DNA of 33,069 bases, taken from a virus. A program made the translations under genes and the position numbers. Below, one piece after another: positions 393 to 32,552 of the stretch. Within the stretch, counting starts at the first letter, position 1; each line of letters begins with the position of its first letter. The stretch covers positions 1 to 33,069 of the IMG/VR virus record IMGVR_UViG_3300045116_000113. One strand, 5' to 3'. The notes beneath the pieces were generated by a model that was not told where the DNA came from, made no database searches, and saw only the letters and a program-made list of their open reading frames with translations.

Positions 393-772
393 TGGTCGTC
401 GGGTTTACTGGGACGCGCCGAGGAGTTACTCCGGCGCAGGCGGCAGGGCTGATGGAGGCGCTGCGGTGGTTACGTGAACGCGGCGCGACAGACCTCCATC
501 ACGGGGCAGCAGTCGGGGCGGATCAGCACGCGGCGCACGTCGCCGCACTTCTGGGGTTTCGGCTCACGGCGCACCCGGCAACAGCCGGGCGCGAGCTGGC
601 GCGGAACCGCGAGATCGTCGCTGCGTGCGACGTCCTCGTGGCGACGCCAGCGACTGAACGCGAGGTGTTGCGTTCAGGTACGTGGGCCACGGTTCGGTAC
701 GCGCGGCAGGCCGGGAAGCCGGTGCTGTTGCTGCCGCCGAACGGAGGAGCGACGGTGAAGGCATGCGAGTGA
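392..772 (+). CDS. SLOG-like (YspA/DprA-type Rossmann) nucleotide-binding protein
   Basis: The start at 392 gives 126 residues beginning MVVGFTGTRRG. The order of elements is a first strand with GFTGTR, then LHHGAAVGADQHAAHVA, then HPA, RNREIVAACDVLVATP and GKPVLLLPP. This is the pattern of the SLOG superfamily (YspA/DUF2493 type), whose members bind nucleotides or nucleotide-derived signals; many occur in phages and conflict systems. A longer in-frame ORF runs upstream to 83, but it overlaps the SWIM gene and reads as shadow. The ATG directly follows ggaggaggct. The ligand cannot be deduced. Confidence 0.75.
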   Translation: MVVGFTGTRRGVTPAQAAGLMEALRWLRERGATDLHHGAAVGADQHAAHVAALLGFRLTAHPATAGRELARNREIVAACDVLVATPATEREVLRSGTWATVRYARQAGKPVLLLPPNGGATVKACE

Positions 773-1053
773 AGGTTCGGTCGCAGAGCGGGCGCGGCAC
801 CTACGACGTCACGTCACGTGGCGTTGCGGGCGCTGCGCCCGCTTTTTTTGCGTACGCATGTACGTGTCCGCGCTACGGGTTCTCGCAGGCGCCGAAGACG
901 TGCAAGCACTGCACGTGGCTACGAACGGCCGAGCAGCTAGTAGCGCGATGCCACAAGGCGCACGGCACGCCGGGCGGCGGCGTGTGCCTGACGTGCCTCG
1001 TCGAGATCGTTGGACGCGCGCTAACGCGGCGCGCGCCGAAGACGCGGCGGTGA
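763..1053 (+). CDS. Second small SWIM/zinc-finger protein
   Basis: The ATG at 763 lies inside the end of the SLOG-like gene (10-base overlap), behind acggaggag at 741-749. The 96-residue product carries CTCP ... CKHC at about residues 33-51, again the CxC...CxH arrangement of SWIM fingers, plus a CLTC pair near the C-terminus. It may be a distant paralogue of the protein at 39-392. The coding sequence contains a hairpin followed by seven T residues (826-849), so transcription could be attenuated inside the gene. Function is unknown. Confidence 0.65.
   Translation: MRVKVRSQSGRGTYDVTSRGVAGAAPAFFAYACTCPRYGFSQAPKTCKHCTWLRTAEQLVARCHKAHGTPGGGVCLTCLVEIVGRALTRRAPKTRR
826..849 (+). terminator. Intrinsic-terminator-like hairpin inside a CDS
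   Basis: GCGGGCG (826-832) and CGCCCGC (836-842) form a 7-bp perfect stem with a 3-base loop, followed by TTTTTTT (843-849). It is the only such hairpin plus T-run I saw in this GC-rich window. It lies within the SWIM gene 763-1053, where the T-run encodes Phe residues. It may end most upstream transcripts before the RNA region that starts near 1071. Confidence 0.6.
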
Positions 1054-1060: not shown

Positions 1061-1066
1061 TATAAT
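1061..1066 (+). promoter_or_regulatory. -10-like box (TATAAT) before the structured RNA
   Basis: A perfect TATAAT stands in strongly GC-rich DNA eight bases after the stop codon of the preceding gene. No TTGACA-like element is visible 16-18 bases upstream. The expected start, 6-8 bases downstream, coincides with the first paired bases of the folded region (1071 onward). The same TATAATA heptamer precedes the portal gene at 32484, and both are followed by CCCGCA. Confidence 0.6.
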
Positions 1067-1070
1067 AGTT

Positions 1071-1690
1071 CCCGCAAGCGACCGGCGGCGGCCCCAACCG
1101 CCCGCAAGTCAGTATCGCTACCGCGCCCACGGTAGACACAACCCGATACTGAGCCGGTCGCGGGCTTCCGGCTTTGGGGACCGGAAGTGACGCAGCGAGG
1201 TTGTGGCTTGATGATGTTAGTAGTTCCAACGTCGAACGTCGCCAACAAGTCGCTGAACCTCAATCCGCGTACGACCGTCTCGGATGCGACGGCCCAACCC
1301 GCATCCCATCGCCTCGGCCGCCCGGCTGCAACGCCACGGCGCGAGGTCGAGCCTGCGAGCTGTAGCGCAGTTGGCGCAGCACGCGACGTCGCCGGGCATA
1401 ACGTCCCGGTCCGTCTCGCGCGCTCGGGCGTAGCGGCGCCCGCCCGTCGCCATGACCACTACAGCCGGTCGCTCGTCGCTCCGCTCCGAGCTAACGCTCT
1501 GCGTGTTTACGCGGGGGTTGTTCCGGAGGGAAGCCACGGGACTACCGGGGGGTCAGGTTCTCCGGGTGGGTATTCTCGCCGAGCCTACAGCTAGCACGCT
1601 GAAGGGCAGAACGCCGGGAACCGCACTAGGGACACGGGAAGGTAGGGGAAGGGGGGTACTGCGTACGGAGGAGATCCGAGCGGGGTCTAA
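1071..1690 (+). ncRNA. Candidate large structured non-coding RNA
   Basis: This stretch of roughly 600 bases has no convincing gene but many perfect complementary segments. The 5' part forms a three-way junction. Its closing stem is 1071-1073/1162-1164 plus 1078-1086/1153-1161 (GCGACCGGC/GCCGGTCGC). Inside are hairpin 1087-1091/1098-1102 and arm 1109-1117/1144-1152 capped by 1118-1123/1130-1135. Hairpin 1165-1171/1181-1187 follows immediately. Further helices are 1282-1287/1301-1306, 1312-1320/1337-1346 with one bulge, 1392-1396/1405-1409 and 1425-1430/1441-1446. The size and phage setting resemble large ornate RNAs such as GOLLD or ROOL, but I cannot assign a family. The 3' end is unknown; the last 100 bases are purine-rich and lead into the next gene's ribosome binding site. 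A 135-codon ORF (1187-1594) crosses the region and is considered less likely. Confidence 0.5.
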
Positions 1691-1701
1691 GGGGGCGCGA
1701 G

Positions 1702-2409
1702 ATGGACAAGAAGCAGCGCGGCGAACCGAACCGCGTTGAGGCACCGGTCGTCGAGCAGGTGGGCGACACGTGGCGCGATTCGGTCGAGCGGCATCCGGCG
1801 TATGCGCAGATTTCAGCGGCGCGCATCGGCATCGGGGGGCCGGGCCTCCGGCTCTACGGGTCGGACTTTCAACACCGCAACTGTGTGCGCGTCGTGATCC
1901 AGCACAGCGAGCTGAGCCGGAGCACGTCGCACGACCGCCACTTTACGACGGGGCGGATCCCGATTGTCGAAGTGTTCTTGAGCGAGGCGCAGTGGGCTAC
2001 GTTCGTCTCGACGCTGAACGTTGGTGACGGGACGCCGTGCACGTTGCGCCTGACGGAGCAGGACGGCTACGCGCCGGAGATCGGCGCGCCGACGGTGACG
2101 CGCACGGCGCAGTTCGCGGCCGAGATCAAGCGGACGCTCTCTACGGCCGTCGAGCAATTGCGCGCGATGGCGGTGGCAGCCAAGACGGAGAAGCAGCGGC
2201 ACGCATTGGACGTGCTAGCCGGTGGGATCGAGGCCAACGCGGCGTGGATTGCCGGGCAGTTCGACAAGCACGCCGAAGAGACGGTCGAGAAGGCCAAGAT
2301 CGAGATTCATGCCTATGCGACGGGCGTGCTACAGCGGGCGGGCCTCGCCGCGCTAGCAGGCGGCGCGGCGCCGAAGCTGCTGGAAGGGGCGGACGATGGG
2401 CGCGAGTGA
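1702..2409 (+). CDS. Conserved phage protein of unknown function
   Basis: This 235-residue protein contains HPAYAQISAARI, LYGSDF, a block around VEVFLSEAQWATFVSTLNVG, and a long helical C-terminal half (about residues 130-225) that may be coiled coil. The segment SEAQWATFV...LNVGDGTPCTL looks familiar from uncharacterised phage proteins, but I know no function for them. The start follows aaggggg with 7-base spacing. It is the first gene after the structured RNA and probably shares its transcript. It overlaps the following zinc-ribbon gene by 14 bases. Confidence 0.65.
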   Translation: MDKKQRGEPNRVEAPVVEQVGDTWRDSVERHPAYAQISAARIGIGGPGLRLYGSDFQHRNCVRVVIQHSELSRSTSHDRHFTTGRIPIVEVFLSEAQWATFVSTLNVGDGTPCTLRLTEQDGYAPEIGAPTVTRTAQFAAEIKRTLSTAVEQLRAMAVAAKTEKQRHALDVLAGGIEANAAWIAGQFDKHAEETVEKAKIEIHAYATGVLQRAGLAALAGGAAPKLLEGADDGRE

Positions 2410-2668
2410 GTATGAAGCGCGGGCAGGCGTCCATCCGGAGCGCGAGTCACGCGAGTGGCGCGTCAAGTGTCAGACGCTAGAGCATCCGTCGTCTATCGTC
2501 TACTTCGCGGACTGCCCGTTCTGCGGCGTTGAGGTCAAGCTGTACCTGTGGAGCCTGTGCGGGAGCGGGAAGCGGTGCCCGACGTGCCGCGCGATGTTCA
2601 CGTCATTCGGGCAGGCGTGGCGCGCCCGCGTAGCGCAGGCGCCAGCCGAGGAGGGAAGCGGACGATGA
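2396..2668 (+). CDS. Small zinc-ribbon protein
   Basis: The 90-residue product has CPFC (about residues 40-43) and CPTC (about 60-63), a classical four-Cys zinc ribbon. The flanking sequence is WRVKCQTLEHP and YLWSLCGSGKR. Such ribbons are frequent in small phage proteins and usually bind nucleic acid or protein. The start overlaps the preceding gene by 14 bases and the stop overlaps the RtcB start (ATGA), so the three are translationally coupled. No specific function can be given. Confidence 0.65.
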   Translation: MGASEYEARAGVHPERESREWRVKCQTLEHPSSIVYFADCPFCGVEVKLYLWSLCGSGKRCPTCRAMFTSFGQAWRARVAQAPAEEGSGR

Positions 2669-3831
2669 ACCGGATCGACGTTGATGGAGGCGTGCCGATC
2701 TTGTCGTGGGCGACGGATCTGGAGCCGGGCGCGCTGGCGCAGGCGCAGAACCTCGCGCGGCTGCCGTTCGCGTTCCGGAACGTGTCGCTGATGCCGGACG
2801 CGCATCAGGGCTACGGCATGCCGATAGGCGGCGTGTTGGCGGCCGTAGGGGTAGTGGTGCCGAACGCCGTAGGCGTTGACATCGGGTGCGGCATGCTGGC
2901 GGCGCGGACGACGTTGCGCGCGGAGGAGTTGCCGCGCGAGCGACTCGCGGCCGTGCTAGGCGAGGTCCGGAAGCGTGTGCCGGTCGGGTTCGCGAAGCAC
3001 GCGGAGCCGTGCGAATGGCACGATGTGACGCGCCTCTTAGATGGACTCGACTGGGACAAGTTGCTGATCGTATCGGCCGGGTGGGATGCGGTGCCCGCTC
3101 AGCTCGGGACGCTCGGCGGCGGCAACCACTTCATCGAGATACAAGCCGACGATGCGGGCGCGGTGTGGGTGATGATCCACAGCGGTTCGCGGAACGTCGG
3201 CAAGCAGGTGGCCGACTACTACAACCGGCAGGCACAGGCGCTGAACGAGCGGTACTGGTCGCGCGTGCCGTCGGACTGGGATCTGGCGTTCATCCCGCTC
3301 GATGAGCAAGACGGGCAGACCTACATTCAGGAGATGAACTTCTGCGTGCGGTTCGCGCTCGCCAACCGGCAACGCATGGCGGCCGTTGTCTTGGCGGCGC
3401 TCGGCGTCGAGGCGGCCGAGGTGATCAACATCGCGCACAACTACGCCGCCGAGGAGGTGCACGACGGCAAGAAGGTGTGGGTGCACCGGAAGGGCGCGAC
3501 GCTGGCCGAAGACAGGCTGGCGGGGATCATTCCCGGCTCGCAGGGTAGCGCCAGCTACATCGTGCGCGGGCGCGGCGAGCGGCAGTCGTTCCGGTCGTGC
3601 TCACACGGGGCCGGGCGGCGCATGGGGCGGAAGCAGGCGCAGCGGACGTTGAGCCTTGCCGATGAACAGGCGCGACTCGATGCGCAAGGGATCCTCCATT
3701 CCGTCCGGCACGCTTCGGATCTGGACGAAGCCCCGAGCGCCTACAAGGACATCGATGCCGTGATGGCAAGTCAGCGCGACCTCGTTGAGACGGTCGTGCG
3801 GTTGCGCCCGCTGGCGGTGGTGAAGGGATAG
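2665..3831 (+). CDS. rtcB: RtcB-type RNA ligase
   Basis: RtcB joins RNA 2',3'-cyclic phosphate (or 3'-phosphate) ends to 5'-OH ends using Mn2+ and GTP, repairing or splicing tRNAs. The 388-residue protein, near the usual 400, shows the family signatures in order: DAHQGYGMPIGGV, DIGCGM (metal-binding Asp72 and Cys75), GGGNHFIE, HSGSRNVG, HNYA, HRKGAT, PGSQG and SCSHGAGR. His314 of SHGAGR is the residue expected to be guanylylated (His337 in E. coli as I recall). The start uses an ATGA overlap. No archease was seen. In a phage it probably repairs tRNAs cut by host nucleases; maturation of the RNA encoded upstream is a speculative alternative. Confidence 0.95.
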   Translation: MNRIDVDGGVPILSWATDLEPGALAQAQNLARLPFAFRNVSLMPDAHQGYGMPIGGVLAAVGVVVPNAVGVDIGCGMLAARTTLRAEELPRERLAAVLGEVRKRVPVGFAKHAEPCEWHDVTRLLDGLDWDKLLIVSAGWDAVPAQLGTLGGGNHFIEIQADDAGAVWVMIHSGSRNVGKQVADYYNRQAQALNERYWSRVPSDWDLAFIPLDEQDGQTYIQEMNFCVRFALANRQRMAAVVLAALGVEAAEVINIAHNYAAEEVHDGKKVWVHRKGATLAEDRLAGIIPGSQGSASYIVRGRGERQSFRSCSHGAGRRMGRKQAQRTLSLADEQARLDAQGILHSVRHASDLDEAPSAYKDIDAVMASQRDLVETVVRLRPLAVVKG

Positions 3832-4349: not shown

Positions 4350-5201
4350 ATGGGTGAGGTTCTGATTGAACCGGATGCGCCGGTTGTAGCGGCTTTGCCG
4401 TCGCGCCCGGCGCACGCGCCGCTGGAGCTGATCACGATGAGCGGCGACAACGTCGGGGCGCTGTTCGGCGCGCTCGCGGCGGCGCAGGGGGAGTTCGGTA
4501 GCGTCGAGCGGACGCTGACGGCGAAGATCACCGGCAAGGCCACCTACACCTACGACTACGAGACGCTGGCCGACTTGCTGGAGGCCGTGCGTCCGGCGTT
4601 GTCGAAGAACGGGCTGGCGCTGATGCAGTTCCCGACGACGCGCAGCCGGGGCGTGGTCGTACGCACGCTGCTCGGCCACAGCAGCGGGCAGTGGATCGCG
4701 TCAGACCTCGGCGCAGAACCGGGCGGACTAGATCCGCAGGCCGTCGGGTCGGCGATCACGTATCTCCGGCGCTACGCACTGAAGTCCATCCTCGGCCTCG
4801 CGCCTGATGTAGATGACGGCGGTGCGGCAGCGGCCGGTGCGCCGAAGCCCGCGCAGCGACTCTCGCAGCAGGCCGACTCGCCGCAGGCGACGCCCGCTCA
4901 GGCGCAGGCTGCTCCTGCCCCGGCGCCGCCCGCGCCTAGCCCGGCATCGAATGGCGACGCGCTGCCGAATGTCGGCCTCGTCATGAACCTCGCCGAGCGT
5001 TCTGACGGCATGATTGTGCGTCTGTCGACGGGGTTCACGGCAGCCACGCGCAGCGCAGAGATCATGGCGTCGCTGAAACGGCACCAGACCTCGGGGCAGG
5101 TCGTGGAGCTGGTGACGAAGCCGAGCCGTGACCCGGCGAAGTACGCGCCGACCATTACCGAGATCATCCTCCAGTCGCGCGAACCGGGGCAGGACGGCTG
5201 A
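4350..5201 (+). CDS. erf: ERF-family single-strand annealing protein
   Basis: ERF proteins (as in phage P22) anneal complementary single strands during phage recombination, usually with a nuclease partner. The N-terminal part matches the family: ALFGALAAAQGEFGSVERTLT, then YTYDYETLADLLEAVRPALSKNGLALMQ, and VGSAITYLRRYALKSILGLAPDVDDGG (residues about 30-155). A Pro/Ala/Gln-rich linker (about 158-200) follows, then a separate C-terminal domain with KRHQTSGQVVELV. The start follows acggagggg. It overlaps the next gene by one base, and that gene encodes the expected exonuclease partner. Confidence 0.9.
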   Translation: MGEVLIEPDAPVVAALPSRPAHAPLELITMSGDNVGALFGALAAAQGEFGSVERTLTAKITGKATYTYDYETLADLLEAVRPALSKNGLALMQFPTTRSRGVVVRTLLGHSSGQWIASDLGAEPGGLDPQAVGSAITYLRRYALKSILGLAPDVDDGGAAAAGAPKPAQRLSQQADSPQATPAQAQAAPAPAPPAPSPASNGDALPNVGLVMNLAERSDGMIVRLSTGFTAATRSAEIMASLKRHQTSGQVVELVTKPSRDPAKYAPTITEIILQSREPGQDG

Positions 5202-5884
5202 TGGGCGTAACCCGTAAGTGGGACGTCGGCGATATCCGCTATGACGCGGAGCGTCACGAGTCGTGGACGCCGGACGGGAAGCCGGTGCCGCACGTGACGG
5301 GCATCCTGTCGGCCGTTGGGGTCGCGGCTGACTTCGAGGCGCTCGGGGAGACGTCGCCGCGCGTCGCCGCAGCTATCGTGGCGGCCGGGGCGCGCGGGTC
5401 AGCCGCGCACGCCGACTGCCACGCTTACGACGACAACGACTTGGACTGGGCTACGGTGGACCCGCGTGTGCGCCCCTACGTGGAGGCATGGGCGGAGTTC
5501 CGGGAGGTTAGTAACCTCCGGCCGATCATCGGCGGACGCGAGCGCCGCGTCTACCATCCAGACCTACACTACACCGGCATTCTGGACGGCATCTTCACGG
5601 CCGGGTGCATGGATGCGAACGTCTTGGTCGACATCAAGACGGCGGATCCCGAGTCGGCGGCAGCGCATCTTCAGACGATGGCCTATGCGATGGCGTGGGA
5701 GGCTGAGCATCCTGACCAGCCCATCGGCAAGCGCATAGCCGTCTGGCTCCGGCCCGGCCGGGTCGTGTCGTATACGGTCATCGACTACACCGCGCGCCCG
5801 GACCACTGGTTGGATCGGGCGCGGTGGGAAGCGTGCTTGACCGTCTATCGTGAGCAACACGGGCGCCGAGCGCGCATAGGCTGA
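5201..5884 (+). CDS. PD-(D/E)XK phage exonuclease
   Basis: The 227-residue protein belongs to the Cas4/RecB-like PD-(D/E)XK nucleases that resect DNA ends for annealing proteins. Visible motifs are RGSAAHADCHAYDD, ERRVYHPDLHYTGILDGIF with Asp129, VLVDIKTAD with Asp144 and Lys146, and QTMAYAMAWE, the QxxxY helix. No iron-sulfur cysteine cluster is obvious. Its start overlaps the stop of erf (TGATG), the classic phage exonuclease and annealing pair used in replication-linked recombination and concatemer formation. Confidence 0.85.
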   Translation: MGVTRKWDVGDIRYDAERHESWTPDGKPVPHVTGILSAVGVAADFEALGETSPRVAAAIVAAGARGSAAHADCHAYDDNDLDWATVDPRVRPYVEAWAEFREVSNLRPIIGGRERRVYHPDLHYTGILDGIFTAGCMDANVLVDIKTADPESAAAHLQTMAYAMAWEAEHPDQPIGKRIAVWLRPGRVVSYTVIDYTARPDHWLDRARWEACLTVYREQHGRRARIG

Positions 5885-5895
5885 TAGGAGGGGCG

Positions 5896-6753
5896 ATGGG
5901 TGATCAGATTGGGCTTGATATCGAACCAGAAGAAGCAGCCGTTGGAGTAGCGGGCGAGATGGCGCTGGCGCAGGTGCTCCCGCCGGACTTCCCGCTGCGG
6001 ACGCTGCTGACGTTCCTGCCGGACGTCCGGCTGAAGCACCGGCTGCTGGCGCACTCGGCGGAAGCGATGGCCGTGGCGGTAGAGAACGGTGGGGCCGAGG
6101 CGCTGCGGGCGGCCGAAGCCGCGCTCGTACCGGTGCGGGACGACATCAAGGAGATCGGCGAGTGCTTCGCCGAGCCGTGCGACCTCGCCAACCAGCTGCA
6201 CAAGCGGATGACCGGACTGCGCGGCGACTTCCTCGGCGCTGGAGAGCAGGCCGTCAAGGTCGTGGGCCAGCGCATCTACGCCGAGACGCAGCGGCTGAAG
6301 CGCCTCGTCGACGACGAGCGCCGCAAGCGGCAGGAGGAAGCCGACAGGCAGGCGCGAGAGACGGCGCGGAAGGCAGCCGAGGCAGCCACGGCGCAGGCGG
6401 CTCCGGCGCCTGTCGTCGAGGAACTGCTGCGGCGCGCGGAGACGGCCGTGGCGCCGCCTGTCGGCGGGCTGGATGAGCCGGTGCTCGGTACGCTATGGAC
6501 GTCGGCCAAGTGGAAGGCGCGGCTGGTCGGGACGCTGCCAGGTGGGGAAGCGCGGCCGAAGATTGCCATGCTGAGCGAGGCGCAGGCCAAGTCGCTGAAG
6601 CAGATGTTGCAGGCCATCGTTGACGGCCGCGCACCGCTCGGCCTGATCGACGTCGACTGGGGTATGGCCGATAAGCTGGCGAAGGCGAACATGGCCGTGG
6701 ACGGACTGGAGCGGTTCGATGAAGGCAGCACGCGCGCCAAGGCCCGCCGCTGA
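5896..6753 (+). CDS. Coiled-coil phage protein of the recombination cluster
   Basis: The 285-residue product has a long helical middle (about residues 45-175) ending in a charged, predicted coiled-coil stretch (LKRLVDDERRKRQEEADRQ). An Ala/Pro linker leads to a C-terminal domain with LWTSAKWKARLVGTLP and LIDVDWGMADKLAKANM. Similar uncharacterised proteins with a coiled coil and a C-terminal domain of this type often accompany phage annealing proteins. Function is unknown; association with DNA recombination is inferred from position. The start follows ataggaggggcg. Its 3' end overlaps the next gene by 35 bases. Confidence 0.7.
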   Translation: MGDQIGLDIEPEEAAVGVAGEMALAQVLPPDFPLRTLLTFLPDVRLKHRLLAHSAEAMAVAVENGGAEALRAAEAALVPVRDDIKEIGECFAEPCDLANQLHKRMTGLRGDFLGAGEQAVKVVGQRIYAETQRLKRLVDDERRKRQEEADRQARETARKAAEAATAQAAPAPVVEELLRRAETAVAPPVGGLDEPVLGTLWTSAKWKARLVGTLPGGEARPKIAMLSEAQAKSLKQMLQAIVDGRAPLGLIDVDWGMADKLAKANMAVDGLERFDEGSTRAKARR

Positions 6754-7192
6754 CGCTGAGGCCGGGCCGGACCCAGCTGTGCGTCGATGCATGGATGCGT
6801 ATTACGCCGCGTTCGTGCGGCGGTTTAATCCGCCAGAGCAGGCTGAGGTGTGGCTGGCCGGGCATCCGGGTCCGGAGTGGCGACGCGCGAGCCGGGCCGG
6901 GACGCTACCTGTGCCGAGGGAGCAGATGACGCTGCCGCTTATCAGCGGCGGCAAGGACGCCGCGCTCGTCAAGCGGATGGTCGTGGCATGGGGCGAGGTG
7001 AAGGTGCTCTGGCTGATTGCGGAGTTCTTCGGGCCGTCGCGGACGGACCCGCGCGTGGTGCGGAGCAACCACGACCTCGGGGCTATCTACTACTTGGCGC
7101 AATACCTGCTAACGCGCGCGCAGCGGACGCAGGACCAACGGACGGCAGACAACATCGACGCAGTAGCCCGCGCCTTGCGGCCGGGCGCATAG
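6719..7192 (+). CDS. Hypothetical phage protein in the replication region
   Basis: This 157-residue protein begins MKAARAPRPAAD. Its N-terminal 20 residues overlap the previous gene. The core reads YYAAFVRRFNPPEQ, GGKDAALVKRMVVAWGEVKVLWLIAEFFG and DLGAIYYLAQYLL, an alpha-helical domain. The GKD..L.K.....G pattern resembles small phage replication-associated proteins, but I cannot identify a family. It lies directly upstream of the sliding clamp gene, so a replication role is plausible. There is no clear ribosome binding site, which suggests translational coupling. Confidence 0.6.
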   Translation: MKAARAPRPAADAEAGPDPAVRRCMDAYYAAFVRRFNPPEQAEVWLAGHPGPEWRRASRAGTLPVPREQMTLPLISGGKDAALVKRMVVAWGEVKVLWLIAEFFGPSRTDPRVVRSNHDLGAIYYLAQYLLTRAQRTQDQRTADNIDAVARALRPGA

Positions 7193-7203
7193 GAGGATCG
7201 TGC

Positions 7204-8304
7204 ATGGACGTGATGGTGAACCGTGATGACCTGATTCGTGAACTAGAGGTCGTTGACCGCGCCGTGGCGCGCAAGGTGACGATCCCCGTGCTGGCGAACG
7301 TCTTGGTGGCGGCAGAGACCAACGGGACCGTGATGACCGCCGCGACGGACCTTGACCTCAGCATCCGCTCATGGTGGCGCGGGCGCGTCTCCATCGCCGG
7401 GACTAGGACGATTCCGGCGCGCAAGCTCGGAGACGTCGTCAAGACGCTGCCGACCGGTGCGGATGTGCGGCTCGCGTCACCGCTCGAATCGAGCGTGGAG
7501 ATTACGTCAGCAGGCGTCCGCGTGTCGCTACAGACACTTCCGGCGCAGGACTATCCGCTGCTCCCGGCAACGCCGGAAACGGCGCCATTCATCATGGCTC
7601 GGGACCGGTTGAAGGAGACGCTGCAGCGCGTTCGGTTCGTGATCCCACGTGGCGAGGCTGATAAGCGGTTCTATCTCGCCGGTGCGCTCCTTGAGGTCGC
7701 GGACGGCCGCGCGCGCGTCGTCGCGACCGACGGACACCGCCTCGCGCTCGTAGAGATGGCAGCGCAGGGGCAAGAGCAGCTGCGTGAGATCATCGCCGGG
7801 AGCGCGGTTGAGGCGCTGCCGTCGGTCATCGACTACGGTGACGGGAACGACGTCGCGGTACGTGTCGGAGAGAGCCACGTATTCTTCGATACGCCGCAGC
7901 GGACACTGATCGCGCGCCGCTCGTCTGGAGAGTTCCCGAAGTACGTCCGCATCATCCCGGCGGACCGTGAAGAGCGGCTTATCGTGTCGCGCGCTGACCT
8001 CGCGGACTGTGCCCGGCGCGTGCTCGTCGTTGGTGACCAGCAGAAGGCTATCTTCATCGCATCACACGCCCAGCTGGAGGTGTCGGCGGCCGGACAGGAT
8101 GGCGTGCTGATAGAGAAGCTGGCGGCGCAGTACGGCGGCGTAGAGATGAAGATCGCGCTCAACGCGTCGTACGTGGCGGAGTTCCTTGACGCGGCCGGGA
8201 CCGAGCAGGTATCATTCGAGACGGCTGGGCCGGATGCGCCGATGCAGTGGCGGGCGGTCGGTGATGAGTCATACCGCTACGTGTTGATGCCGATGCGGCT
8301 ATAG
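7204..8304 (+). CDS. dnaN: DNA polymerase III beta subunit (sliding clamp)
   Basis: DnaN is the ring that tethers replicative polymerase to DNA. The 366-residue length is that of a bacterial clamp. Diagnostic blocks are KVTIPVLANVLV near residue 27, TDLDLSIR near 52, QDYPLLP near 122, VVATDGHRLALVEM near 180, RRSSGEFPKYVRIIP, and the C-terminal YRYVLMPMRL in place of the usual VVMPMRL. The ATG at 7204 follows ataggaggatcgtgc. No polymerase was seen in this window, so the clamp probably works with a host or distantly encoded polymerase. A phage-encoded clamp is uncommon but known. Confidence 0.95.
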   Translation: MDVMVNRDDLIRELEVVDRAVARKVTIPVLANVLVAAETNGTVMTAATDLDLSIRSWWRGRVSIAGTRTIPARKLGDVVKTLPTGADVRLASPLESSVEITSAGVRVSLQTLPAQDYPLLPATPETAPFIMARDRLKETLQRVRFVIPRGEADKRFYLAGALLEVADGRARVVATDGHRLALVEMAAQGQEQLREIIAGSAVEALPSVIDYGDGNDVAVRVGESHVFFDTPQRTLIARRSSGEFPKYVRIIPADREERLIVSRADLADCARRVLVVGDQQKAIFIASHAQLEVSAAGQDGVLIEKLAAQYGGVEMKIALNASYVAEFLDAAGTEQVSFETAGPDAPMQWRAVGDESYRYVLMPMRL

Positions 8305-12678: not shown

Positions 12679-13131
12679 TTGATTATCGGAGAGGCTCCCT
12701 CGCGTGTCGGCGATCCGCGTCGGCCGATTACGGGTCGCTGCGGGGAGAAGTTGGCGATGATTAGCTGTCTTTCTGGTAGGGCGTTCGCGCGGGTGTTCGC
12801 GCGGGCGAACGTCCTTGAGGTGTGGCCTGGGCCGAGTGGGAGGAAGGGCGCGGCGTTTCCACTGGCGCTCGCGCGCGCGCAGGCTGTGCGCCTACGTCGG
12901 AGGTTCTACCGAGGGCGTGTCGTGTTGCTACTTGGTCATCGTGTGGCTGCGGCGTTCGGCGTGCGCGCGTCCTACCTAACGCGCGTGGTCGTCGGTGGGG
13001 CGGACGTCTTCGTGCTGCCGCACCCGTCCGGCGTTAACCGGTGGTATAACGACGCCGCGAACGTGGCGCGGCTCGGGCGGCTCCTGCGTGGATTCGTGGC
13101 TCATGAGAAGGAGATAGGCGATGGTGAATGA
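12679..13131 (+). CDS. Uracil-DNA-glycosylase-superfamily protein
   Basis: The readable core begins LIIGEAPSRVGDP with PITGRCGEKLA, and near the C-terminus has FVLPHPSGVNRWYND. These correspond to the GEAPG motif and HPS motif of the UDG superfamily (family 4/5 style). The protein is short, 150 residues from TTG 12679 (AGGAGG 13 bases upstream); TTG 12649 is the alternative start. GEAP is followed by S rather than G, so the base recognised may differ from uracil. It lies between the cytosine methyltransferase and CmoA genes. It could police or process modified or deaminated cytosine, or it may have lost glycosylase activity. Confidence 0.7.
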   Translation: MIIGEAPSRVGDPRRPITGRCGEKLAMISCLSGRAFARVFARANVLEVWPGPSGRKGAAFPLALARAQAVRLRRRFYRGRVVLLLGHRVAAAFGVRASYLTRVVVGGADVFVLPHPSGVNRWYNDAANVARLGRLLRGFVAHEKEIGDGE

Positions 13132-13849
13132 GGGCGACGCGGTGGTGGATAGGACGATGCCGACGGGGCCGTGGAAGTTCGATCCGGAGGTGACGGCGGT
13201 CTTCGACGACATGCTTGAGCGGTCGATCCCGCAGTACGACGTTATGCGGAGGGCGATCTTTGATACCGGCCGCGCGTTCGTCACGTCGAAGACGGACGTG
13301 GTAGACCTCGGCTGCTCGCGCGGCGGCGCGCTGGCCGACTTCGTGAAGCACTTCGGAGCGCACAATCGGTTCATCGGTGTCGACGTGAGTGAGCCGATGC
13401 TGGCGGCGTCGCGGGAGCGGTTCAAGCACTACATTGATGCTGGCCTCGCGGATATCCTCAACCTGGACTTACGCGTGGCCTATCCTCCGGTGAAGGCGTC
13501 GTTGACGCTCGCAGTCTTCGCGCTCCAGTTCATTCCAATCGAGCATCGCCAGCGGGTCGTGCAGGAGATGTATGACCACACCGTGGACGGTGGCGCCGTC
13601 ATCGTCGCGGAGAAGGTGCTCGGCGCAACGGCGCGGATCGACCGGACACTCGTTGCGAACTATCACGCGATGAAGCAGGAGCACGGCTATTCGCAGGAGG
13701 CCATCGAGCGCAAGCGCCTGTCACTTGAGGGCGTGCTCGTCCCGGTGACGGCCGCGTGGAACGTTGAACTGCTGCACCAGGCAGGGTTCCGGCAGGTGGA
13801 CTGCTTCTGGGCGTGGATGAACTTCAGGGCGTTCGTGGCGATCCGCTAG
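13121..13849 (+). CDS. cmoA: CmoA, carboxy-S-adenosyl-L-methionine synthase
   Basis: CmoA converts SAM and prephenate to carboxy-SAM, releasing phenylpyruvate and CO2-derived water chemistry products. This 242-residue protein (E. coli CmoA is 247) aligns with it nearly end to end from memory: GPWKFDPEVTAVFDDMLERS, DLGCSRGGAL, LQFIPIEHRQ, GGAVIVAEK, HGYSQEAIERKRLSLEGVL and LHQAGF. Lys198-Arg199 fall at the same numbers as in E. coli, where Arg199 contacts the extra carboxylate as I recall. In bacteria the product is used by CmoB for tRNA cmo5U34; no CmoB is encoded here. The start follows aaggagatag and overlaps the UDG-like gene by 11 bases. A plain methyltransferase is the alternative but fits worse. 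Confidence 0.88.
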   Translation: MVNEGDAVVDRTMPTGPWKFDPEVTAVFDDMLERSIPQYDVMRRAIFDTGRAFVTSKTDVVDLGCSRGGALADFVKHFGAHNRFIGVDVSEPMLAASRERFKHYIDAGLADILNLDLRVAYPPVKASLTLAVFALQFIPIEHRQRVVQEMYDHTVDGGAVIVAEKVLGATARIDRTLVANYHAMKQEHGYSQEAIERKRLSLEGVLVPVTAAWNVELLHQAGFRQVDCFWAWMNFRAFVAIR

Positions 13850-13858
13850 GTGGCGATT

Positions 13859-14689
13859 ATGCCGAATCTCTACGCACTCGTAGATGGTCGGCCTAGAACA
13901 GTCGTCGACGTCGCTGGAGTTAAGGTCGGCGGCAACGACGTCGTCGTGATGGCGGGGCCGTGCGCGGTTGAAAGTGAGCGGATGATCTTCGACGTAGCGC
14001 AGGCTGTGGCGCGATCCGGCGCCTGCGTGCTGCGTGGAGGCGCCTTTAAGCCGCGAACGTCGCCGTATTCCTTCCAGGGGCTTGGTGTCGAGGCGCTGCG
14101 GCTCCTTCGCGCCGCAGCAGACGCGAACGGCTTAAAGGTCGTGTCTGAGATCATGGACGTGTCATACCTGCCGGACATGGAACGGTACGTGGACCTGCTC
14201 CAGATCGGCGCACGCAACATGCAGAACTTCTCGATGCTGCGTGAGATCGGCCGGAGGACGCGCCTGCCGGTGCTCTTGAAGCGTGGCATCTCGGCGACGG
14301 TTGATGAGTGGCTCGCGGCGTCTGAATACGTGCTCGCCGGTGGAAACGCCGCGGTGATTCTCTGCGAGCGCGGCGTGCGTGGATTTGAGCCGCGTGAGCG
14401 GAACATGCTCGACGTGACGGCGATCCCTGTCCTTCGTGAGCTGACGCATCTTCCAGTGATCGTCGACCCGAGCCACGCGACCGGCCGCAGGTCGCTCGTG
14501 TCGCCGGTCGCGGCCGCTGCTATCGCGGCTGGAGCGGACGGCCTGCTCGTCGAGGTGCATGATGATCCGACAGTGGCGCTGAGCGACGGTGAGCAGTCGT
14601 TGGATCCTGCGTGCTTTGAGGCGATGATGAATCGCGTGTGGTCTATCGGATCGGTCCTTGGGAGGTCCGTGCATGCGAAGCCTGCGTGA
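13859..14689 (+). CDS. DAHP synthase (AroF/AroG-like, class I beta)
   Basis: The enzyme condenses phosphoenolpyruvate and erythrose 4-phosphate to DAHP, the first step to chorismate. Family blocks are [68 protein letters not shown] and [20 protein letters not shown]. At 276 residues it is a bare catalytic barrel without the ferredoxin-like or fused chorismate mutase regulatory domain, so it may escape feedback control. A GTG at 13850 is an alternative start. It is followed directly by chorismate mutase, the two activities being fused in B. subtilis. Here it most likely boosts prephenate for CmoA. The related KDO8P synthase is less likely because of the neighbour. Confidence 0.9.
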
Positions 14690-16477: not shown

Positions 16478-16914
16478 ACTACTACATGGGCGTAGATCCG
16501 GGAGCCGGAGGTGGGATTGCTGTGATCGGCGTGGACGGGTCCGTACGGCAAGCGATGCGGATGCCGGAGACGGAGCGCGACCTACTTGACGCGATGGCGG
16601 GTACGTTCGACGGGCCGGTGGTCGCGGCGGCGCTGGAGCGCGTCTGGTCGAGTCCGCAGATGGGCGTCGTGTCGGCCTTTTCGTTCGGGCGGAACTACGG
16701 CGCACTGCGCGTGGCGATGACGGCGTGCCGGATCCCGTTCGACGAGGTATTGCCGCAGCGGTGGCAGAAGGCGCTCGGATGCCTGTCGCGCGGCGACAAG
16801 AATGCGACGAAACGCCGGGCGCAGGATCTGTTCCCGAGCGCCCACGTGACGCACGCTATCGCTGATGCGCTGCTGTTGGCGGAGTACTGCCGGAGGATGC
16901 ACGTTGGTTGCTGA
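16474..16914 (+). CDS. RuvC-like Holliday junction resolvase
   Basis: The 146-residue protein begins MNYYMGVDPGAGGGIAVI, the first RuvC-type catalytic Asp strand. It continues with ALERVWSSPQMG (catalytic Glu), FSFGRNYGALRVA, VLPQRWQKALG, and ends with THAIADALLLAEY (final Asp). This is the RNase H fold of phage crossover-junction endonucleases, which cut four-way junctions during recombination and before packaging. It overlaps the methyltransferase by ATGA and the DnaB start by 11 bases. Confidence 0.85.
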   Translation: MNYYMGVDPGAGGGIAVIGVDGSVRQAMRMPETERDLLDAMAGTFDGPVVAAALERVWSSPQMGVVSAFSFGRNYGALRVAMTACRIPFDEVLPQRWQKALGCLSRGDKNATKRRAQDLFPSAHVTHAIADALLLAEYCRRMHVGC

Positions 16915-18214
16915 GGCGCTTTACGACCGCCCGTTGCCGCACGACTTGATGGCTGAGCGCGCCGTGCTCGGTGCTGTGCTACTCGATGCGCATGCGCTAG
17001 CGACGGTGGCAGCCGTAGTCCGGGCACGCGACTTCTTCCGGGATGCGCACCGGAGGATCTTCGGTGCGATGACGGTAGTGCAGGCGGCCGGAGCCAAGCC
17101 GGACTTCGTGACGTTGTGTGATGAGCTGCGGAAGCGGGGTGAACTCGACGACGTGGGTGGCCCGGCGTATATCGCCGCGCTTGTTGACGGGATGCCGCTT
17201 CAGAGTAACGTGGCGGCGCATGCTGAGATCGTGCGCGAGAAGGCACGGCTGCGCGGGCTGTTGTCGGCAGCTAACCGCCTTCTTGTGGTCGCTCACGGTG
17301 AGGAAGTTCCAGCTGCGCGGCTCGTCGAAGATGCCGTGCGTGAGCTGACCGGGTGCGTTGAAGTGTCGGGAGCGGGCATCATCGTGGAGCTGGAGGCTAT
17401 TAGGCAGTATGTCGCGTCGGTGACGGCCGATGAAGGCAAGCCGCTACTGACCGGGTACGCTGACCTCGATGCGCTGGTGGGCGGAGTCCGGCCGGGCGAA
17501 TTGGTTGTGGTCGCGGCGCGGCCGAGCGTCGGCAAGAGCAGCTTCGCGCTCGGCCTCGGGCGAGCCGTGGCGCAGGCCGGGCGCACGGTGCTGTTCTGTT
17601 CGCTGGAGATGAGCGTGCGGACGCTGGCGGCCCGGCTGCTGGCGTGGGAGTCGGGTGTCCCGGCGGCGAAGTTCGAGCGCAGCACAGCGAGTGAGGCGGA
17701 GTACGCGCGGATGATGGAGGCGGCCGGGCGCGAGGAGCGGTTGCCGCTCTACATCGAGGCATCGGCGCGGACGCTGACAGAAGTGGGGGCATGGGGGCGG
17801 CGGCTGCGGAAGGAGCGGGAACTGGCGTGCCTCATCGTCGACTACCTTCAGTTGCTGTTGCCGGAATCGCGCCATGAGAGCGGGGAGGCAGAGGTAGCGT
17901 CAGTCGTGCGGGCGCTGAAACTGCTAGCCGTGGATCTGGATATCCCGGTCGTGGCGCTGTCGCAGCTGAACCGCGCGCCTGAGCAGCGCCGCGACAAGCG
18001 GCCGCACGTGAGCGACCTTCGGGGTAGCGGCGCCATTGAGCAGGCATGCGACCTCGCCCTGCTGCTGTTCCGGGAGGAGATGTACCGGCCGAAGCCTGAG
18101 AACGCCGGGATCGCCGAGGTCATCGTGGCGAAGAACCGGAACGGCCCGGTCGGGACGGTGCGCCTCCAGTTCGAGAAGGCGTTGGCGAAGTTCAACAACT
18201 TGGAAGGAGCGTGA
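16904..18214 (+). CDS. dnaB: DnaB-family replicative helicase
   Basis: The 436-residue protein has the DnaB architecture. The N-terminal domain reads PHDLMAERAVLGAVLLD and DFFRDAHRRIF. A linker leads to the RecA-like domain with LTGYADLDALVGGVRPGEL, Walker A ARPSVGKSS (Lys211), FCSLEMS, Walker B LIVDYLQLL, ALSQLNRAPEQRRDKRP, DLRGSGAIEQACDLALLLFREE and KNRNGPVG. It unwinds DNA at the phage fork. The TTG start at 16904 is chosen because GGAGG lies 7 bases upstream and the protein then begins LVAEALYDRPLPHD; the ATG at 16865 would overlap the resolvase far more. The SSB gene follows. Confidence 0.95.
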   Translation: MVAEALYDRPLPHDLMAERAVLGAVLLDAHALATVAAVVRARDFFRDAHRRIFGAMTVVQAAGAKPDFVTLCDELRKRGELDDVGGPAYIAALVDGMPLQSNVAAHAEIVREKARLRGLLSAANRLLVVAHGEEVPAARLVEDAVRELTGCVEVSGAGIIVELEAIRQYVASVTADEGKPLLTGYADLDALVGGVRPGELVVVAARPSVGKSSFALGLGRAVAQAGRTVLFCSLEMSVRTLAARLLAWESGVPAAKFERSTASEAEYARMMEAAGREERLPLYIEASARTLTEVGAWGRRLRKERELACLIVDYLQLLLPESRHESGEAEVASVVRALKLLAVDLDIPVVALSQLNRAPEQRRDKRPHVSDLRGSGAIEQACDLALLLFREEMYRPKPENAGIAEVIVAKNRNGPVGTVRLQFEKALAKFNNLEGA

Positions 18215-18217
18215 GTG

Positions 18218-18640
18218 ATGGGAAGCGTGAACAGGTTGCTGATCGTCGGGAACGTTGGGAGGGATGCGGAGGTGCGCACCTCGCCTGAAGGACACAAGGT
18301 CGCGAACTTCTCAGTGGCGACGACGGAGACGTGGAAGGGTCGGGACGGGGCGAAGCAGGAACGCACGACGTGGTTCCGCGTGGCGCTCTGGGGCAAGCAG
18401 GCCGAGGCTATCGGCCAGTATCTCGTGAAGGGCAAGCAGGTATGCGTCGAGGGCAGCGTCTCCGTGCGCGAGTACGATAAGGACAATGAGAAGCGGTTCT
18501 CGCTCGACGTGCGGGCCGACCGCGTGACGTTGCTGGGTGGACCGCGCGCCGACGATGGCGGTGCGTCGCGTCGGGAGCGTAGTGCGGAGCCGGAACCGGC
18601 CGGACCTGAACCGGCTGGAGATGAGGATATTCCGTTCTGA
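18218..18640 (+). CDS. ssb: Single-stranded DNA-binding protein
   Basis: This 140-residue SSB has the OB-fold sequence NRLLIVGNVGRDAEVRTSPEG, VANFSVAT, TTWFRVALWGKQAEA, LVKGKQVCVEGSV and RFSLDVRADRV. A disordered Pro/Glu tail ends in the acidic tip DEDIPF, which recruits replication and repair partners. The ATG at 18218 lies 8 bases behind ggaaggag; GTG 18215 is less likely. It protects single strands made by the helicase and by the exonuclease with the annealing protein encoded at 4350-5884. Confidence 0.95.
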   Translation: MGSVNRLLIVGNVGRDAEVRTSPEGHKVANFSVATTETWKGRDGAKQERTTWFRVALWGKQAEAIGQYLVKGKQVCVEGSVSVREYDKDNEKRFSLDVRADRVTLLGGPRADDGGASRRERSAEPEPAGPEPAGDEDIPF

Positions 18641-18893: not shown

Positions 18894-19249
18894 AGGGATG
18901 GGCGCGCGACACGCTGTTCGCGCGGTTCGGGCATGGCTGTTTCGGCAAGCGGCCGTACCCGAGCCGCCACGTGGCCGAGGGCGTGCGCCGAGCGATGATA
19001 CGGCGGGGCGCGACCGAGACGCTGACGGCGTACCGGTGCCGGGCGTGCCACAAGTGGCACCTCGGGAACCAGCGCCCGCGCGCCGCCGGTCGTGCTCTAG
19101 CCGGTGCCGACGGTCCCGGCGGAAGGCGTGCCGATGCGTCTGCGGCGGAGGGCGGCACGGGACCGAGCAGCCAGGGGGCCAGTACCGGTTCGCCTGGGGC
19201 GCCGGGGGGCCGGAAAACAGCCCTGCCGGGGCGCCTAGCAGCCCCGTAG
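18890..19249 (+). CDS. Small zinc-binding phage protein with low-complexity tail
   Basis: A GTGA overlap places the start at 18890. The first 60 residues read KRPYPSRHVAEGVRRAMIRRG, then LTAYRCRACHKWHLGNQR: a CxxC...H knuckle with an adjacent KWHLG. This matches a small zinc protein often found in phage genomes with no known role. The last 55 residues are Gly/Ala/Pro-rich, and the coding sequence runs into the repeat at 19233-19259, so the true C-terminus may have been extended by non-coding DNA. Confidence 0.6.
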   Translation: MKGWARDTLFARFGHGCFGKRPYPSRHVAEGVRRAMIRRGATETLTAYRCRACHKWHLGNQRPRAAGRALAGADGPGGRRADASAAEGGTGPSSQGASTGSPGAPGGRKTALPGRLAAP

Positions 19250-19259
19250 GGCGTCGCAG
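19233..19259. repeat. GC-rich intergenic repeat, copy A
   Basis: The 27-base segment starts GCCTAGCAGCCCCGTAGG and ends GGCGTCGCAG. It matches 31524-31550 at 23 of 27 positions. Both copies lie at or just after the end of a gene block. A 3' end or processing element, or a protein-binding site, is possible. Function is unknown. Confidence 0.5.
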
Positions 19260-19263
19260 GCGG

Positions 19264-19323
19264 CCGGGCTAGGGGGTAGGTAGCCGGGCCGGTCCGGGCT
19301 GGTCCTACGGCCACCTAGCCCGG
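19264..19323. repeat. Nested inverted repeats in a 250-base intergenic gap
   Basis: CCGGGCTAGG (19264-19273) and CCTAGCCCGG (19314-19323) are perfect complements. Inside them GTAGG (19276-19280) pairs with CCTAC (19303-19307). The loop holds TAGCCGGGCC, which also occurs at 31527-31536. The gap 19250-19497 has no gene; beyond this element it is GC-rich sequence ending in the ribosome binding site of the next gene. It separates the replication block from the sugar cluster. Confidence 0.55.
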
Positions 19324-19497
19324 CTAGGGAACCGGGGGGCCGGGGGCGGCCGGGAGACGGAATCGGGGCGGGGCCGGGGGTGGCCGGGCAGGATAAGCCC
19401 AACCTGCCAGACTGCCGCCGCCGTTTGGGAGAGCAGCGGCCGGAAGTGCGCCGGGCGGCGCACGGCCCGGCTCCGCTCCGAGCTGCGAGGAGGAGTG

Positions 19498-27242: not shown

Positions 27243-27571
27243 CCCCAGAACAGGAACGCGCCGAGCGCGACGTCCGTGGGGCGATGGCAGAGGCGGTCGT
27301 GAACGACGCCGACGCGGTGGTATCCCCTGATAACCTGCGCGTGCTCCTCGCCGCGCTGGACGAGGTGCGGACTGAGCGGGGCCGGGCGGTGGCCCAACTC
27401 GCCGAGTGCTACCGCCTAACCGGAGCCGAACCTGACGAGGGCGACGATGATACGACGCTGGCCTCTCGCGCCCCCACGGAGGTGGCACGGCTTCGGCAGG
27501 AACTCCACGATGCGCGGACATGGAAGACCGGCCCAAGGAAGACTACGCGGGGCGCGGAGGAGACGCCATGA
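27239..27571 (+). CDS. Hypothetical helical protein
   Basis: The GTG at 27239 (GTGA overlap) gives 110 residues starting VTPEQERAERDVRGAMAEAV. It is predicted to be helical, with VLLAALDEVRTERGRAVAQLAECYRL and a C-terminal VARLRQELHDAR that may be coiled coil. It ends in a basic, disordered tail. No family was recognised. Confidence 0.5.
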   Translation: MTPEQERAERDVRGAMAEAVVNDADAVVSPDNLRVLLAALDEVRTERGRAVAQLAECYRLTGAEPDEGDDDTTLASRAPTEVARLRQELHDARTWKTGPRKTTRGAEETP

Positions 27572-27798
27572 CCCCTGACGAAGCCCTGCGGTTCGTGCGC
27601 GGCGAACTGAAGTCGTCCTGCTTTGACATGAACGTGGAGATGTGTTACTCCACGGCGGCGAACGTGTTGGCCAAGGAAGTCGAGCGGTCGCGGGAGAAGT
27701 GGGCGCGGCTGCGGGCGTGGTTGTTGCAGTCCGGTGATGCGTATTCGCTGGCGGCGGTCGGGAAGATGGACGCCCTCGACGCGGAGGAGAAACCATGA
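27568..27798 (+). CDS. Hypothetical protein, tandem paralogue A
   Basis: The 76-residue protein reads MTPDEALRFVRGEL, YSTAANVLAKEVERSREKWARLRAWLL and KMDALDAEEKP. It is a paralogue of the next gene: both start MTPDEAL, share REKW..LR.WL and end KMDALDAE, with a 24-base exact repeat at the ends. The start follows gcggaggagacgcc. Function is unknown; probably an all-helical small protein. Confidence 0.6.
   Translation: MTPDEALRFVRGELKSSCFDMNVEMCYSTAANVLAKEVERSREKWARLRAWLLQSGDAYSLAAVGKMDALDAEEKP
27763..27786. repeat. 24-base direct repeat, copy A (copy B 28017-28040)
   Basis: AAGATGGACGCCCTCGACGC followed by GGAG is identical at 27763-27786 and 28017-28040, in the 3' ends of two adjacent paralogous genes. 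This records a recent tandem duplication or conversion. Confidence 0.85.
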
Positions 27799-28058
27799 CC
27801 CCCGATGAAGCCCTAGCGTGCTACGCGACCATTACGGAGGAGTGCTACTCCGCTGAGACACTGATCGAGGCGGGGAAAGTGCTGGCCCTAGAGGTCAAGT
27901 GGCAGCGGGAGAAGTGGACCGTGCTGCGGACGTGGTTGCCAGTGGCGTCCGCTGGACTTCCCAGCCCGAGCCTCGGCACGGCGAATTGGGGACTGGCGTT
28001 CTCGGTGGTGAAGCAGAAGATGGACGCCCTCGACGCGGAGCCGAAGGAGACGCGATGA
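27795..28058 (+). CDS. Hypothetical protein, tandem paralogue B
   Basis: The 87-residue protein reads MTPDEALACYATITEECYSAETLIEAGKVLALEVKW (in parts matching paralogue A), then REKWTVLRTWLP and VVKQKMDALDAEPKE. Compared with paralogue A it has an insertion of about 10 residues before the C-terminal block. It overlaps the preceding gene and the following gene by ATGA. Confidence 0.6.
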   Translation: MTPDEALACYATITEECYSAETLIEAGKVLALEVKWQREKWTVLRTWLPVASAGLPSPSLGTANWGLAFSVVKQKMDALDAEPKETR

Positions 28059-28204
28059 GTGACCAACTGGGCGCGGCCATCGCGACAGGATGTTGGATCG
28101 TCTGGCTGGTCTTCTGGGCGGTCGTGCTGACCGCGATCATCGCCTATGCGGTGGCGACGGCGTGGGTGGACATGAAGCCCGAACGGAGGAGGCGCGATGA
28201 GTGA
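28055..28204 (+). CDS. Small single-span membrane protein
   Basis: The 49-residue protein has one long hydrophobic segment, TGCWIVWLVFWAVVLTAIIA, at about residues 11-33, and a basic C-terminus (MKPERRRRDE). That topology suggests the charged tail is cytoplasmic. It lies in a run of overlapping small genes. It may be a membrane regulator or lysis-related peptide; no evidence distinguishes these. Confidence 0.6.
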   Translation: MSDQLGAAIATGCWIVWLVFWAVVLTAIIAYAVATAWVDMKPERRRRDE

Positions 28205-31280: not shown

Positions 31281-31505
31281 ATGCCGAATGATCAGGAGAT
31301 CGAGGCGTTCACCAACATGGTCCGCGTGGCTGAGGCGTATGCCGAGCGGTGCGGCGGGATGAGCGTCGCCGAGGCGCTGCGGGTCGTGATGCGCGTGCTC
31401 GACGTGATGCAACAGGTGTTCCCGTCGGGAGCGGGAGCCGACCCGCTCAGCGCCGTGCGGCGGGCCGTCCGCATCGGCGCCGACGGCCGGGCCGGGGACG
31501 ACTGA
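31281..31505 (+). CDS. Hypothetical small protein
   Basis: The 74-residue protein reads MPNDQEIEAFTNMVRVAEAYAERCGGMSVAEALRVVMRVLDVMQQVF and ends in a disordered, charged tail. It lies two bases after the TerL stop, with the ribosome binding site ggcggaggtag inside the TerL end. It is helical. No family is recognised. Confidence 0.6.
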   Translation: MPNDQEIEAFTNMVRVAEAYAERCGGMSVAEALRVVMRVLDVMQQVFPSGAGADPLSAVRRAVRIGADGRAGDD

Positions 31506-31523
31506 AAACGGGCGCGCCTGACG

Positions 31524-31550
31524 GCCTAGCCGGGCCGTAGGGCGGCGCAG
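31524..31550. repeat. GC-rich intergenic repeat, copy B
   Basis: GCCTAGCCGGGCCGTAGGGC and the following GGCGCAG match 19233-19259 at 23 of 27 positions. It lies 19 bases after a stop codon, in a 143-base gap (31506-31648) with no gene. The rest of the gap is G-rich and ends with the TAACCGGTTAGG palindrome. Confidence 0.5.
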
Positions 31551-31622
31551 ACGCCGGGGGGCGGGGTAGGGGTAGGGGGTGGCGGTCGGCCGTTCCTAGA
31601 GGCGCAGGGGAGGCCGGGCGTA

Positions 31623-32483: not shown

Positions 32484-32489
32484 TATAAT
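32484..32489 (+). promoter_or_regulatory. -10-like box (TATAAT) before the portal gene
   Basis: TATAAT lies 11 bases after a stop codon and 63 bases before the portal ATG. The heptamer TATAATA also stands at 1061, and in both places CCCGCA and a GGCG-rich segment follow. No clear -35 element is visible. It would start the structural-gene transcript with a short leader containing aggag. Confidence 0.55.
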
Positions 32490-32552
32490 ACCCGCAGGAC
32501 CGCGCGGCGACGGCGACGGCCCGACCCGCCTCGGACAGAACAGGAGCACGAC

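What the first reader, a model, noticed from the sequence alone, without database searches (positions are those of the whole stretch)
1061..1690. Large structured RNA candidate with its own -10 box
A perfect TATAAT is followed within five bases by a series of adjacent perfect helices (three-way junction 1071-1164, hairpin 1165-1187, more to about 1446) over 600 bases without a clear gene. The fit between expected transcription start and first helix argues for an independent RNA. An RtcB ligase is encoded just downstream. It may belong to or resemble GOLLD/ROOL-type phage RNAs.
Basis: partly seen in the sequence, partly recalled or inferred. Interest (0 to 1): 0.75.

Follow-up and report, generated by a model that had tools for sequence, protein, structure and literature searches.

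The report
Structured non-coding leader in orphan phage
Between two genes of an otherwise densely packed, unclassified phage genome lies about 520 bases that do not code for protein, start just after a promoter-like box and fold unusually well as RNA; it matches no known RNA family and no relative was found, so it is a credible but unproven new regulatory or stand-alone RNA.

Summary
TATAAT (1061-1066) is exact. The three-way junction (1078-1161) and hairpin (1166-1186) are there as described. The 648-bp gap 1054-1701 has no codon signature in any frame.

The fold beats shuffles: z -5.2 for 1071-1164, z -3.3 for 1071-1592. The latter is the lowest of 42 windows of that size. The stretch 1188-1446 alone is ordinary (z 0.05), and 1600-1701 is not structured. 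The RNA-like part therefore ends near 1592.

GOLLD/ROOL membership is not supported: no Rfam match at any threshold used, no tRNA in the record, no homologue in phages, plasmids, the IMG/VR loci fetched or RtcB-flanking loci. With no homologue, covariation cannot be tested.

No terminator lies between 1071 and the gene at 1702, so a long structured 5' leader is at least as likely as an independent RNA. A new clue favours a leader. The only other TATAAT in the record (32484, before the portal gene) is followed by a similar start of transcript, including 16 of 17 bases of a hairpin motif at 1286-1302. That suggests a shared leader element of the phage's two promoters (antitermination- or regulator-like). 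This is inference.

The parts
1061..1066 (+). TATAAT, -10-like box; expected start of transcription about 1073-1074
   Evidence: Sequence; only two TATAAT in the record, both intergenic; no -35 recognised. Promoter activity inferred.
1071..1164 (+). 5' three-way junction: P1 1078-1086/1153-1161, P2 1087-1091/1098-1102, P3 1109-1117/1144-1152, P4 1118-1123/1130-1135
   Evidence: z -5.2, pair probabilities 0.98-1.00; also z -4.4 for 1071-1190.
1166..1186 (+). hairpin, loop CTTTGGGGA (1172-1180); loop bases 1174-1179 TTGGGG are complementary to the whole P2 loop CCCCAA (1092-1097): possible kissing loop
   Evidence: complementarity (p about 0.01 for this loop pair, 0.11 over all loops: suggestive only).
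1196..1262 (+). long interrupted hairpin 1197-1202/1256-1261, 1203-1210/1246-1253, 1212-1218/1235-1241
   Evidence: z -3.1, boundaries chosen after seeing the fold.
1282..1306 (+). hairpin GGATGCG-ACGGCCCAACC-CGCATCC holding motif GCGACGGCCCAACCCGC (1286-1302), repeated with one change in the portal-operon leader
1312..1346 (+). hairpin 1312-1320/1337-1346
   Evidence: z -2.3.
1358..1592 (+). 3' multibranch domain closed by 1358-1364/1586-1592 (AGCTGTA/TACAGCT), with hairpin 1385-1415 and the rod; probable 3' border of the structured part
   Evidence: z -3.7, closing helix p 0.97 when the sequence is cut at 1600 but not when extended to 1701.
1438..1571 (+). long irregular rod-like hairpin, 54 predicted pairs
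   Evidence: z -4.7, 0 of 200 shuffles as stable.
1593..1701 (+). unstructured G-rich stretch up to the next gene, with a G-quadruplex motif at 1629-1656
   Evidence: z -0.8 for 1600-1701; motif.
1702..2409 (+). first gene downstream, phrog_6452 family, unknown function
   Evidence: E 2.3e-39.
2665..3831 (+). RtcB RNA ligase gene
   Evidence: Pfam RtcB E 1.7e-110.
32484..32489 (+). second TATAAT, before the portal gene (32553 on)
   Evidence: portal PHROG E 9.3e-13.
32507..32530 (+). leader motif similar to 1078-1102 (score 28 against 14.8 +/- 2.6 in shuffles); 32513-32529 matches 1286-1302 in 16 of 17 bases

Best explanation
Positions ~1073-1592 are a structured, untranslated RNA at the start of the transcript that begins at the TATAAT box and runs into the rightward gene block (phrog_6452, RtcB, Erf recombinase, exonuclease, sliding clamp). 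It most likely works in cis as a leader. As the transcript emerges, its 5' three-way junction and hairpins, including a GG-CCC(C)RA-CC hairpin motif shared with the leader of the structural-gene promoter at 32484, bind a phage or host factor or RNA polymerase. This would set how far the long downstream unit is transcribed or how it is translated, in the manner of put- or nut-type antitermination leaders. Shown: non-coding, better folded than chance, placed at a -10 box, 5' part resembles the other TATAAT leader, no terminator before the next gene. Inferred: transcription, the binding partner, antitermination or other control.
For: No codon signature over 1054-1701 in a densely coding record. 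Fold of 1071-1592 lowest of 42 equal windows; domains z -5.2 and -4.7. GC skew near zero (-0.04, lowest region of the record), as expected of a mostly paired RNA and unlike the genes. Structure begins 4-17 bases after the -10 box. Leader similarity to the only other TATAAT site: 1055-1115 against 32476-32545 scores 30, shuffles 14.5 +/- 2.4, 0 of 1000; without the box 28 against 14.8 +/- 2.6, 0 of 1000. The 17-base motif recurs with one change at 32513; 60 shuffled genomes gave no copy with <=2 changes; GGC{3,4}RACC occurs three times in both strands, all in these two leaders. No terminator-like site between 1071 and 1702.
Against: No -35 element. No homologue, hence no covariation. Domain borders were chosen after seeing the fold, which inflates z. 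The shared motif was found by inspection and its predicted fold in the 32484 leader differs, so it could be a DNA or single-strand element. A 520-nt leader is long for put or nut sites, which are under about 100 nt (own knowledge).
Confidence: 0.42

Rival explanations
1. An independent, abundant large structured RNA of about 520 nt, working like GOLLD or ROOL (homo-oligomeric RNA made in infection) but of another family.
For: Size and multi-domain fold; own -10 box; possible 6-bp kissing loop 1092-1097 with 1174-1179, and GOLLD/ROOL assemble through kissing loops and sit in phages near tRNA islands (PMC12286853); RtcB-bearing relatives of this phage's ligase lie next to tRNA genes.
Against: No Rfam match, no tRNA in the record, no terminator or defined 3' end, no homologue anywhere searched; loop complementarity not significant over all loops (0.11).
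Confidence: 0.25
2. A DNA element: replication origin, recombination or packaging site, whose inverted repeats happen to fold as RNA.
For: Near-zero GC skew against positive skew elsewhere; the minus strand folds almost as well (z -2.1 for 1071-1592, -3.35 for 1358-1592); replication and recombination genes follow.
Against: No iteron-like direct repeats, no A+T-rich unwinding region, and the + strand folds better than the - strand for the 5' domain (-5.2 against -2.8).
Confidence: 0.15
3. Mostly decayed or spacer DNA in which a G+C of 0.67 gives good folding by chance, with perhaps a short functional promoter leader only.
For: z of about -5 arises about once per shuffled 33 kb, and coding parts of this genome reach -7; 1188-1446 is ordinary; no homologues.
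Against: Two strong domains in the single longest non-coding gap next to a -10 box; whole 522-nt window lowest of 42; gaps elsewhere in this phage are shorter.
Confidence: 0.13
4. An unusual protein gene, ORF 1187-1594 (135 aa), with a structured 5' leader.
For: Open for 135 codons with GTG start just after the hairpin.
Against: Codon score -0.06 and flat GC by codon position; no PHROG, Pfam or tblastn match; open frames of this length are common by chance at this G+C (many overlapping ones).
Confidence: 0.05

Closest known systems
ROOL RNA (Rfam RF03087)
   Same: Large multi-domain phage-encoded RNA of similar length (model 574 positions); loop-loop contacts conceivable
   Different: No covariance-model match; no tRNA island; no known conserved motif seen
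GOLLD RNA (Rfam RF02032)
   Same: Large structured phage RNA in an intergenic gap
   Different: No match; many GOLLD RNAs exceed 800 nt and lie near tRNAs (PMC12286853); here no tRNA
put/nut leader RNAs of lambdoid phages (HK022, lambda; own knowledge, no paper retrieved)
   Same: Structured RNA directly downstream of phage promoters, a similar element in two operon leaders
   Different: Known sites are under about 100 nt; no N- or Nun-like partner identified here; no sequence match tested
RtcB-tRNA cassettes of other phages
   Same: RtcB of 52-57% identity in IMG/VR contigs
   Different: Several of those contigs carry tRNA genes beside RtcB; this record has none

Membership tests
ROOL (RF03087) | match to the covariance model | tested here: not met
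   0 matches at gathering, none at E<=5 in 900-1900, none at E<=10 (the control genomes also gave none, so this last test has no positive control)
ROOL (RF03087) | occurs near tRNA islands | tested here: not met
   no tRNA in the record; the record is only 33 kb and possibly a fragment
GOLLD (RF02032) | match to the covariance model of the conserved 3' region | tested here: not met
GOLLD / ROOL | covarying secondary structure in homologues | not testable with these tools
   no homologue found in phages, plasmids, IMG/VR or genome loci
GOLLD / ROOL | homo-oligomeric cage formation | not testable with these tools
   needs biochemistry or cryo-EM
any Rfam family (ribozymes, introns, riboswitches, tmRNA) | match at curated cut-off | tested here: not met
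   permissive search gave two chance-level hits on the opposite strand
structured phage leader (put/nut-like) | located at the transcript start of phage operons, similar element in more than one leader | tested here: inconclusive
   similar sequence after both TATAAT sites; transcription not shown
structured phage leader (put/nut-like) | suppresses termination by RNA polymerase | not testable with these tools
   needs a reporter assay
protein-coding gene | codon-position signature | tested here: not met

The most novel reading that the evidence does not exclude
A new class of large, multi-domain phage RNA (about 520 nt, 5' three-way junction, kissing hairpin, long 3' rod) made from its own promoter and working in trans during infection, possibly as an RNA-only assembly or in tRNA/RNA-repair biology with the nearby RtcB.
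Probability: 0.17. Interest if true: 0.8.

Novelty: new variant of a known kind. Interest (0 to 1): 0.42.

Why it matters
Few large structured phage RNAs are known and their functions are open. An orphan phage with a 520-nt structured non-coding leader, and a hairpin motif repeated at its second promoter, would offer either a new antitermination-type leader or a new large RNA class. One transcript-mapping experiment would tell them apart.

Tried and rejected
Rfam scan, strict and permissive: nothing. ROOL and GOLLD by family: nothing. tRNA reading of GTAGCGCAGTTGGCGCAGC (1362-1380), which looks like a tRNA D-arm: rejected, ARAGORN finds only junk when forced and the Rfam tRNA model does not ring. 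Homologue hunts: blastn against phages and plasmids (only matches of about 30-50 bases at chance level); IMG/VR loci through phrog_6452, sliding clamp, Erf, RtcB, terminase and DnaB proteins (best relatives 45-57%, none from a close relative); a 14-mer of the junction (only chance hits); RtcB loci in 84,980 genomes; single-sequence covariance models of the 5' domain and the rod over the loci fetched and over 41 whole records (5' domain only): only E>0.3. ORF 1187-1594 as a gene: rejected. Hammerhead-like TTGATGATG near 1208: core not met, no Rfam hit. A scan of z over the whole window timed out twice and was replaced by samples and a local-fold z scan.

Full report
WHAT THE RECORD IS. The window is a whole IMG/VR virus record of 33,069 bases, G+C 0.675. 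All genes called with confidence run on the + strand: a DprA/SLOG-like protein (392-772), a gene of family phrog_6452 (1702-2409), RtcB (2665-3831), Erf (4350-5201), exonuclease (5201-5884), sliding clamp (6850-8304), DnaB (16865-18214), SSB (18215-18640), terminase (29725-31278) and the start of a portal gene at 32553. No close relative was found: phrog_6452 best 45%, RtcB best 53-57%, no relative returned for clamp, terminase or DnaB in viral contigs by the close-relative search.

THE OBSERVATION. TATAAT stands at 1061-1066; the only other copy in the record is at 32484, just before the portal gene. The three-way junction is exact: 1078-1086/1153-1161, 1087-1091/1098-1102, 1109-1117/1144-1152 and 1118-1123/1130-1135, all with pair probability 0.98 or more. 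The adjacent hairpin is 1166-1171/1181-1186. Against dinucleotide shuffles 1071-1190 has z -4.4 and 1071-1164 z -5.2. The next part, 1188-1446, is no better than shuffled alone (z 0.05). From 1600 on nothing is unusual, so the structured part is about 1073-1592.

IS IT MORE THAN CHANCE. The 522-nt stretch 1071-1592 gave z -3.3 with 80 shuffles and -4.2 with 20; 41 control windows of the same length had mean -0.25, sd 1.1 and a best value of -2.97. A local-fold scan is more sobering. z of about -5 occurs about once per shuffled 33 kb, and this genome has -7 inside or at the edge of genes (561-689 and 785-846). So the fold alone does not prove a functional RNA. Its coincidence with the longest non-coding gap and a -10 box is what counts. 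The domain borders were picked after seeing the fold, which flatters the z values.

NOT A GENE. Codon scores over 1054-1701 are negative or near zero in every frame, while true genes score 0.2-0.5. ORF 1187-1594 has GC by codon position .71/.63/.67 instead of about .7/.5/.8, and no PHROG, Pfam or tblastn match. GC skew is about zero, as for a mostly paired RNA, where the genes are G-rich.

KNOWN FAMILIES. No Rfam family matches, strict or permissive; ROOL and GOLLD searched by name give nothing at E<=10 (for ROOL the control genomes were empty too, so this is weak). There is no tRNA in the record. GOLLD and ROOL are described near tRNA islands of phages and assemble through kissing loops (PMC12286853). 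A 6-bp complementarity between the P2 loop (1092-1097) and the next hairpin loop (1174-1179) is of that flavour, but not significant over all loops (0.11).

HOMOLOGUES. None by blastn in phages or plasmids, none by nhmmer or single-sequence covariance models in the loci around RtcB, Erf and phrog_6452 relatives or in 41 whole virus records. Single-sequence models reach only fairly close relatives, so absence is not shown.

A LINK BETWEEN THE TWO PROMOTERS. The sequence around and after TATAAT 1061 resembles that at TATAAT 32484: local score 30 against 14.5 +/- 2.4 in shuffles, and 28 against 14.8 +/- 2.6 for the part after the box, 0 of 1000 shuffles in both. The hairpin motif 1286-1302 GCGACGGCCCAACCCGC recurs at 32513-32529 with one change, and a looser copy is P2 itself. 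The string GGC(3-4)RACC occurs three times in both strands, all in these two leaders. The motif was noticed by inspection, and in the 32484 leader the predicted fold differs, so it may act as sequence rather than as the same hairpin.

HOW IT MOST LIKELY WORKS. No terminator-like site lies between 1071 and 1702, and the first gene follows directly. The simplest reading is a long structured 5' leader of the rightward gene block, which with a shared element at the second promoter suggests control by a factor that recognises phage transcripts, such as antitermination (confidence 0.42). An independent large RNA (0.25), a DNA site (0.15), chance (0.13) and a protein gene (0.05) remain. Transcription itself is inferred; no -35 is recognisable.

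Noticed in passing
window 19185-19330 and 31491-31650: Two intergenic elements of the same record are related (73% over 81 nt, E 3e-8), with a hairpin that seems to keep pairing through changes and a GGGGTAGGGGTAGGGGG-type stretch. No exact match to their shared core in IMG/VR.
   Followed up: partly
window 1629-1656, 19327-19388, 31556-31579 and 31641-31663: G-quadruplex motifs occur only on the + strand and, apart from one at 18880, lie in or at the edge of the non-coding gaps.
   Followed up: no
window 785-849: Strongest hairpin of the record (z -7.5, 28-base arms, 79% complementary) followed by seven T: a textbook intrinsic terminator, yet it lies inside ORF 763-1053, whose Cys/His pattern looks like a SWIM zinc finger by eye (no Pfam hit).
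   Followed up: partly
window 561-689: Extremely stable fold (z -7.0 on +, -6.3 on -) inside the DprA/SLOG-like gene 392-772.
   Followed up: no
window 1478-1492 and 19470-19484: Identical 15-mer GCTCCGCTCCGAGCT in two non-coding gaps, the second about 10 bases before a start codon.
   Followed up: no
L172 5511-5950: Read by eye: a tRNA-like 5' half and 3' half (GTGGTTCAAATC...) about 370 bases apart, with an HNH-endonuclease-like ORF (5606-5920) between them, just upstream of RtcB.
   Followed up: no
L166, L168, L169, L170, L171, L203: Phage RtcB genes of 52-57% identity lie near tRNA genes, several within 10-100 bases of an RtcB end, consistent with tRNA repair.
   Followed up: partly
window 27553-28065: Diverged direct repeats (77-100% over 25-70 nt) in a run of small ORFs.
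   Followed up: no
window 13121-14689: A methyltransferase (PHROG: tRNA methyltransferase) next to a DAHP synthase gene, an unusual metabolic pair for a small phage.
   Followed up: no
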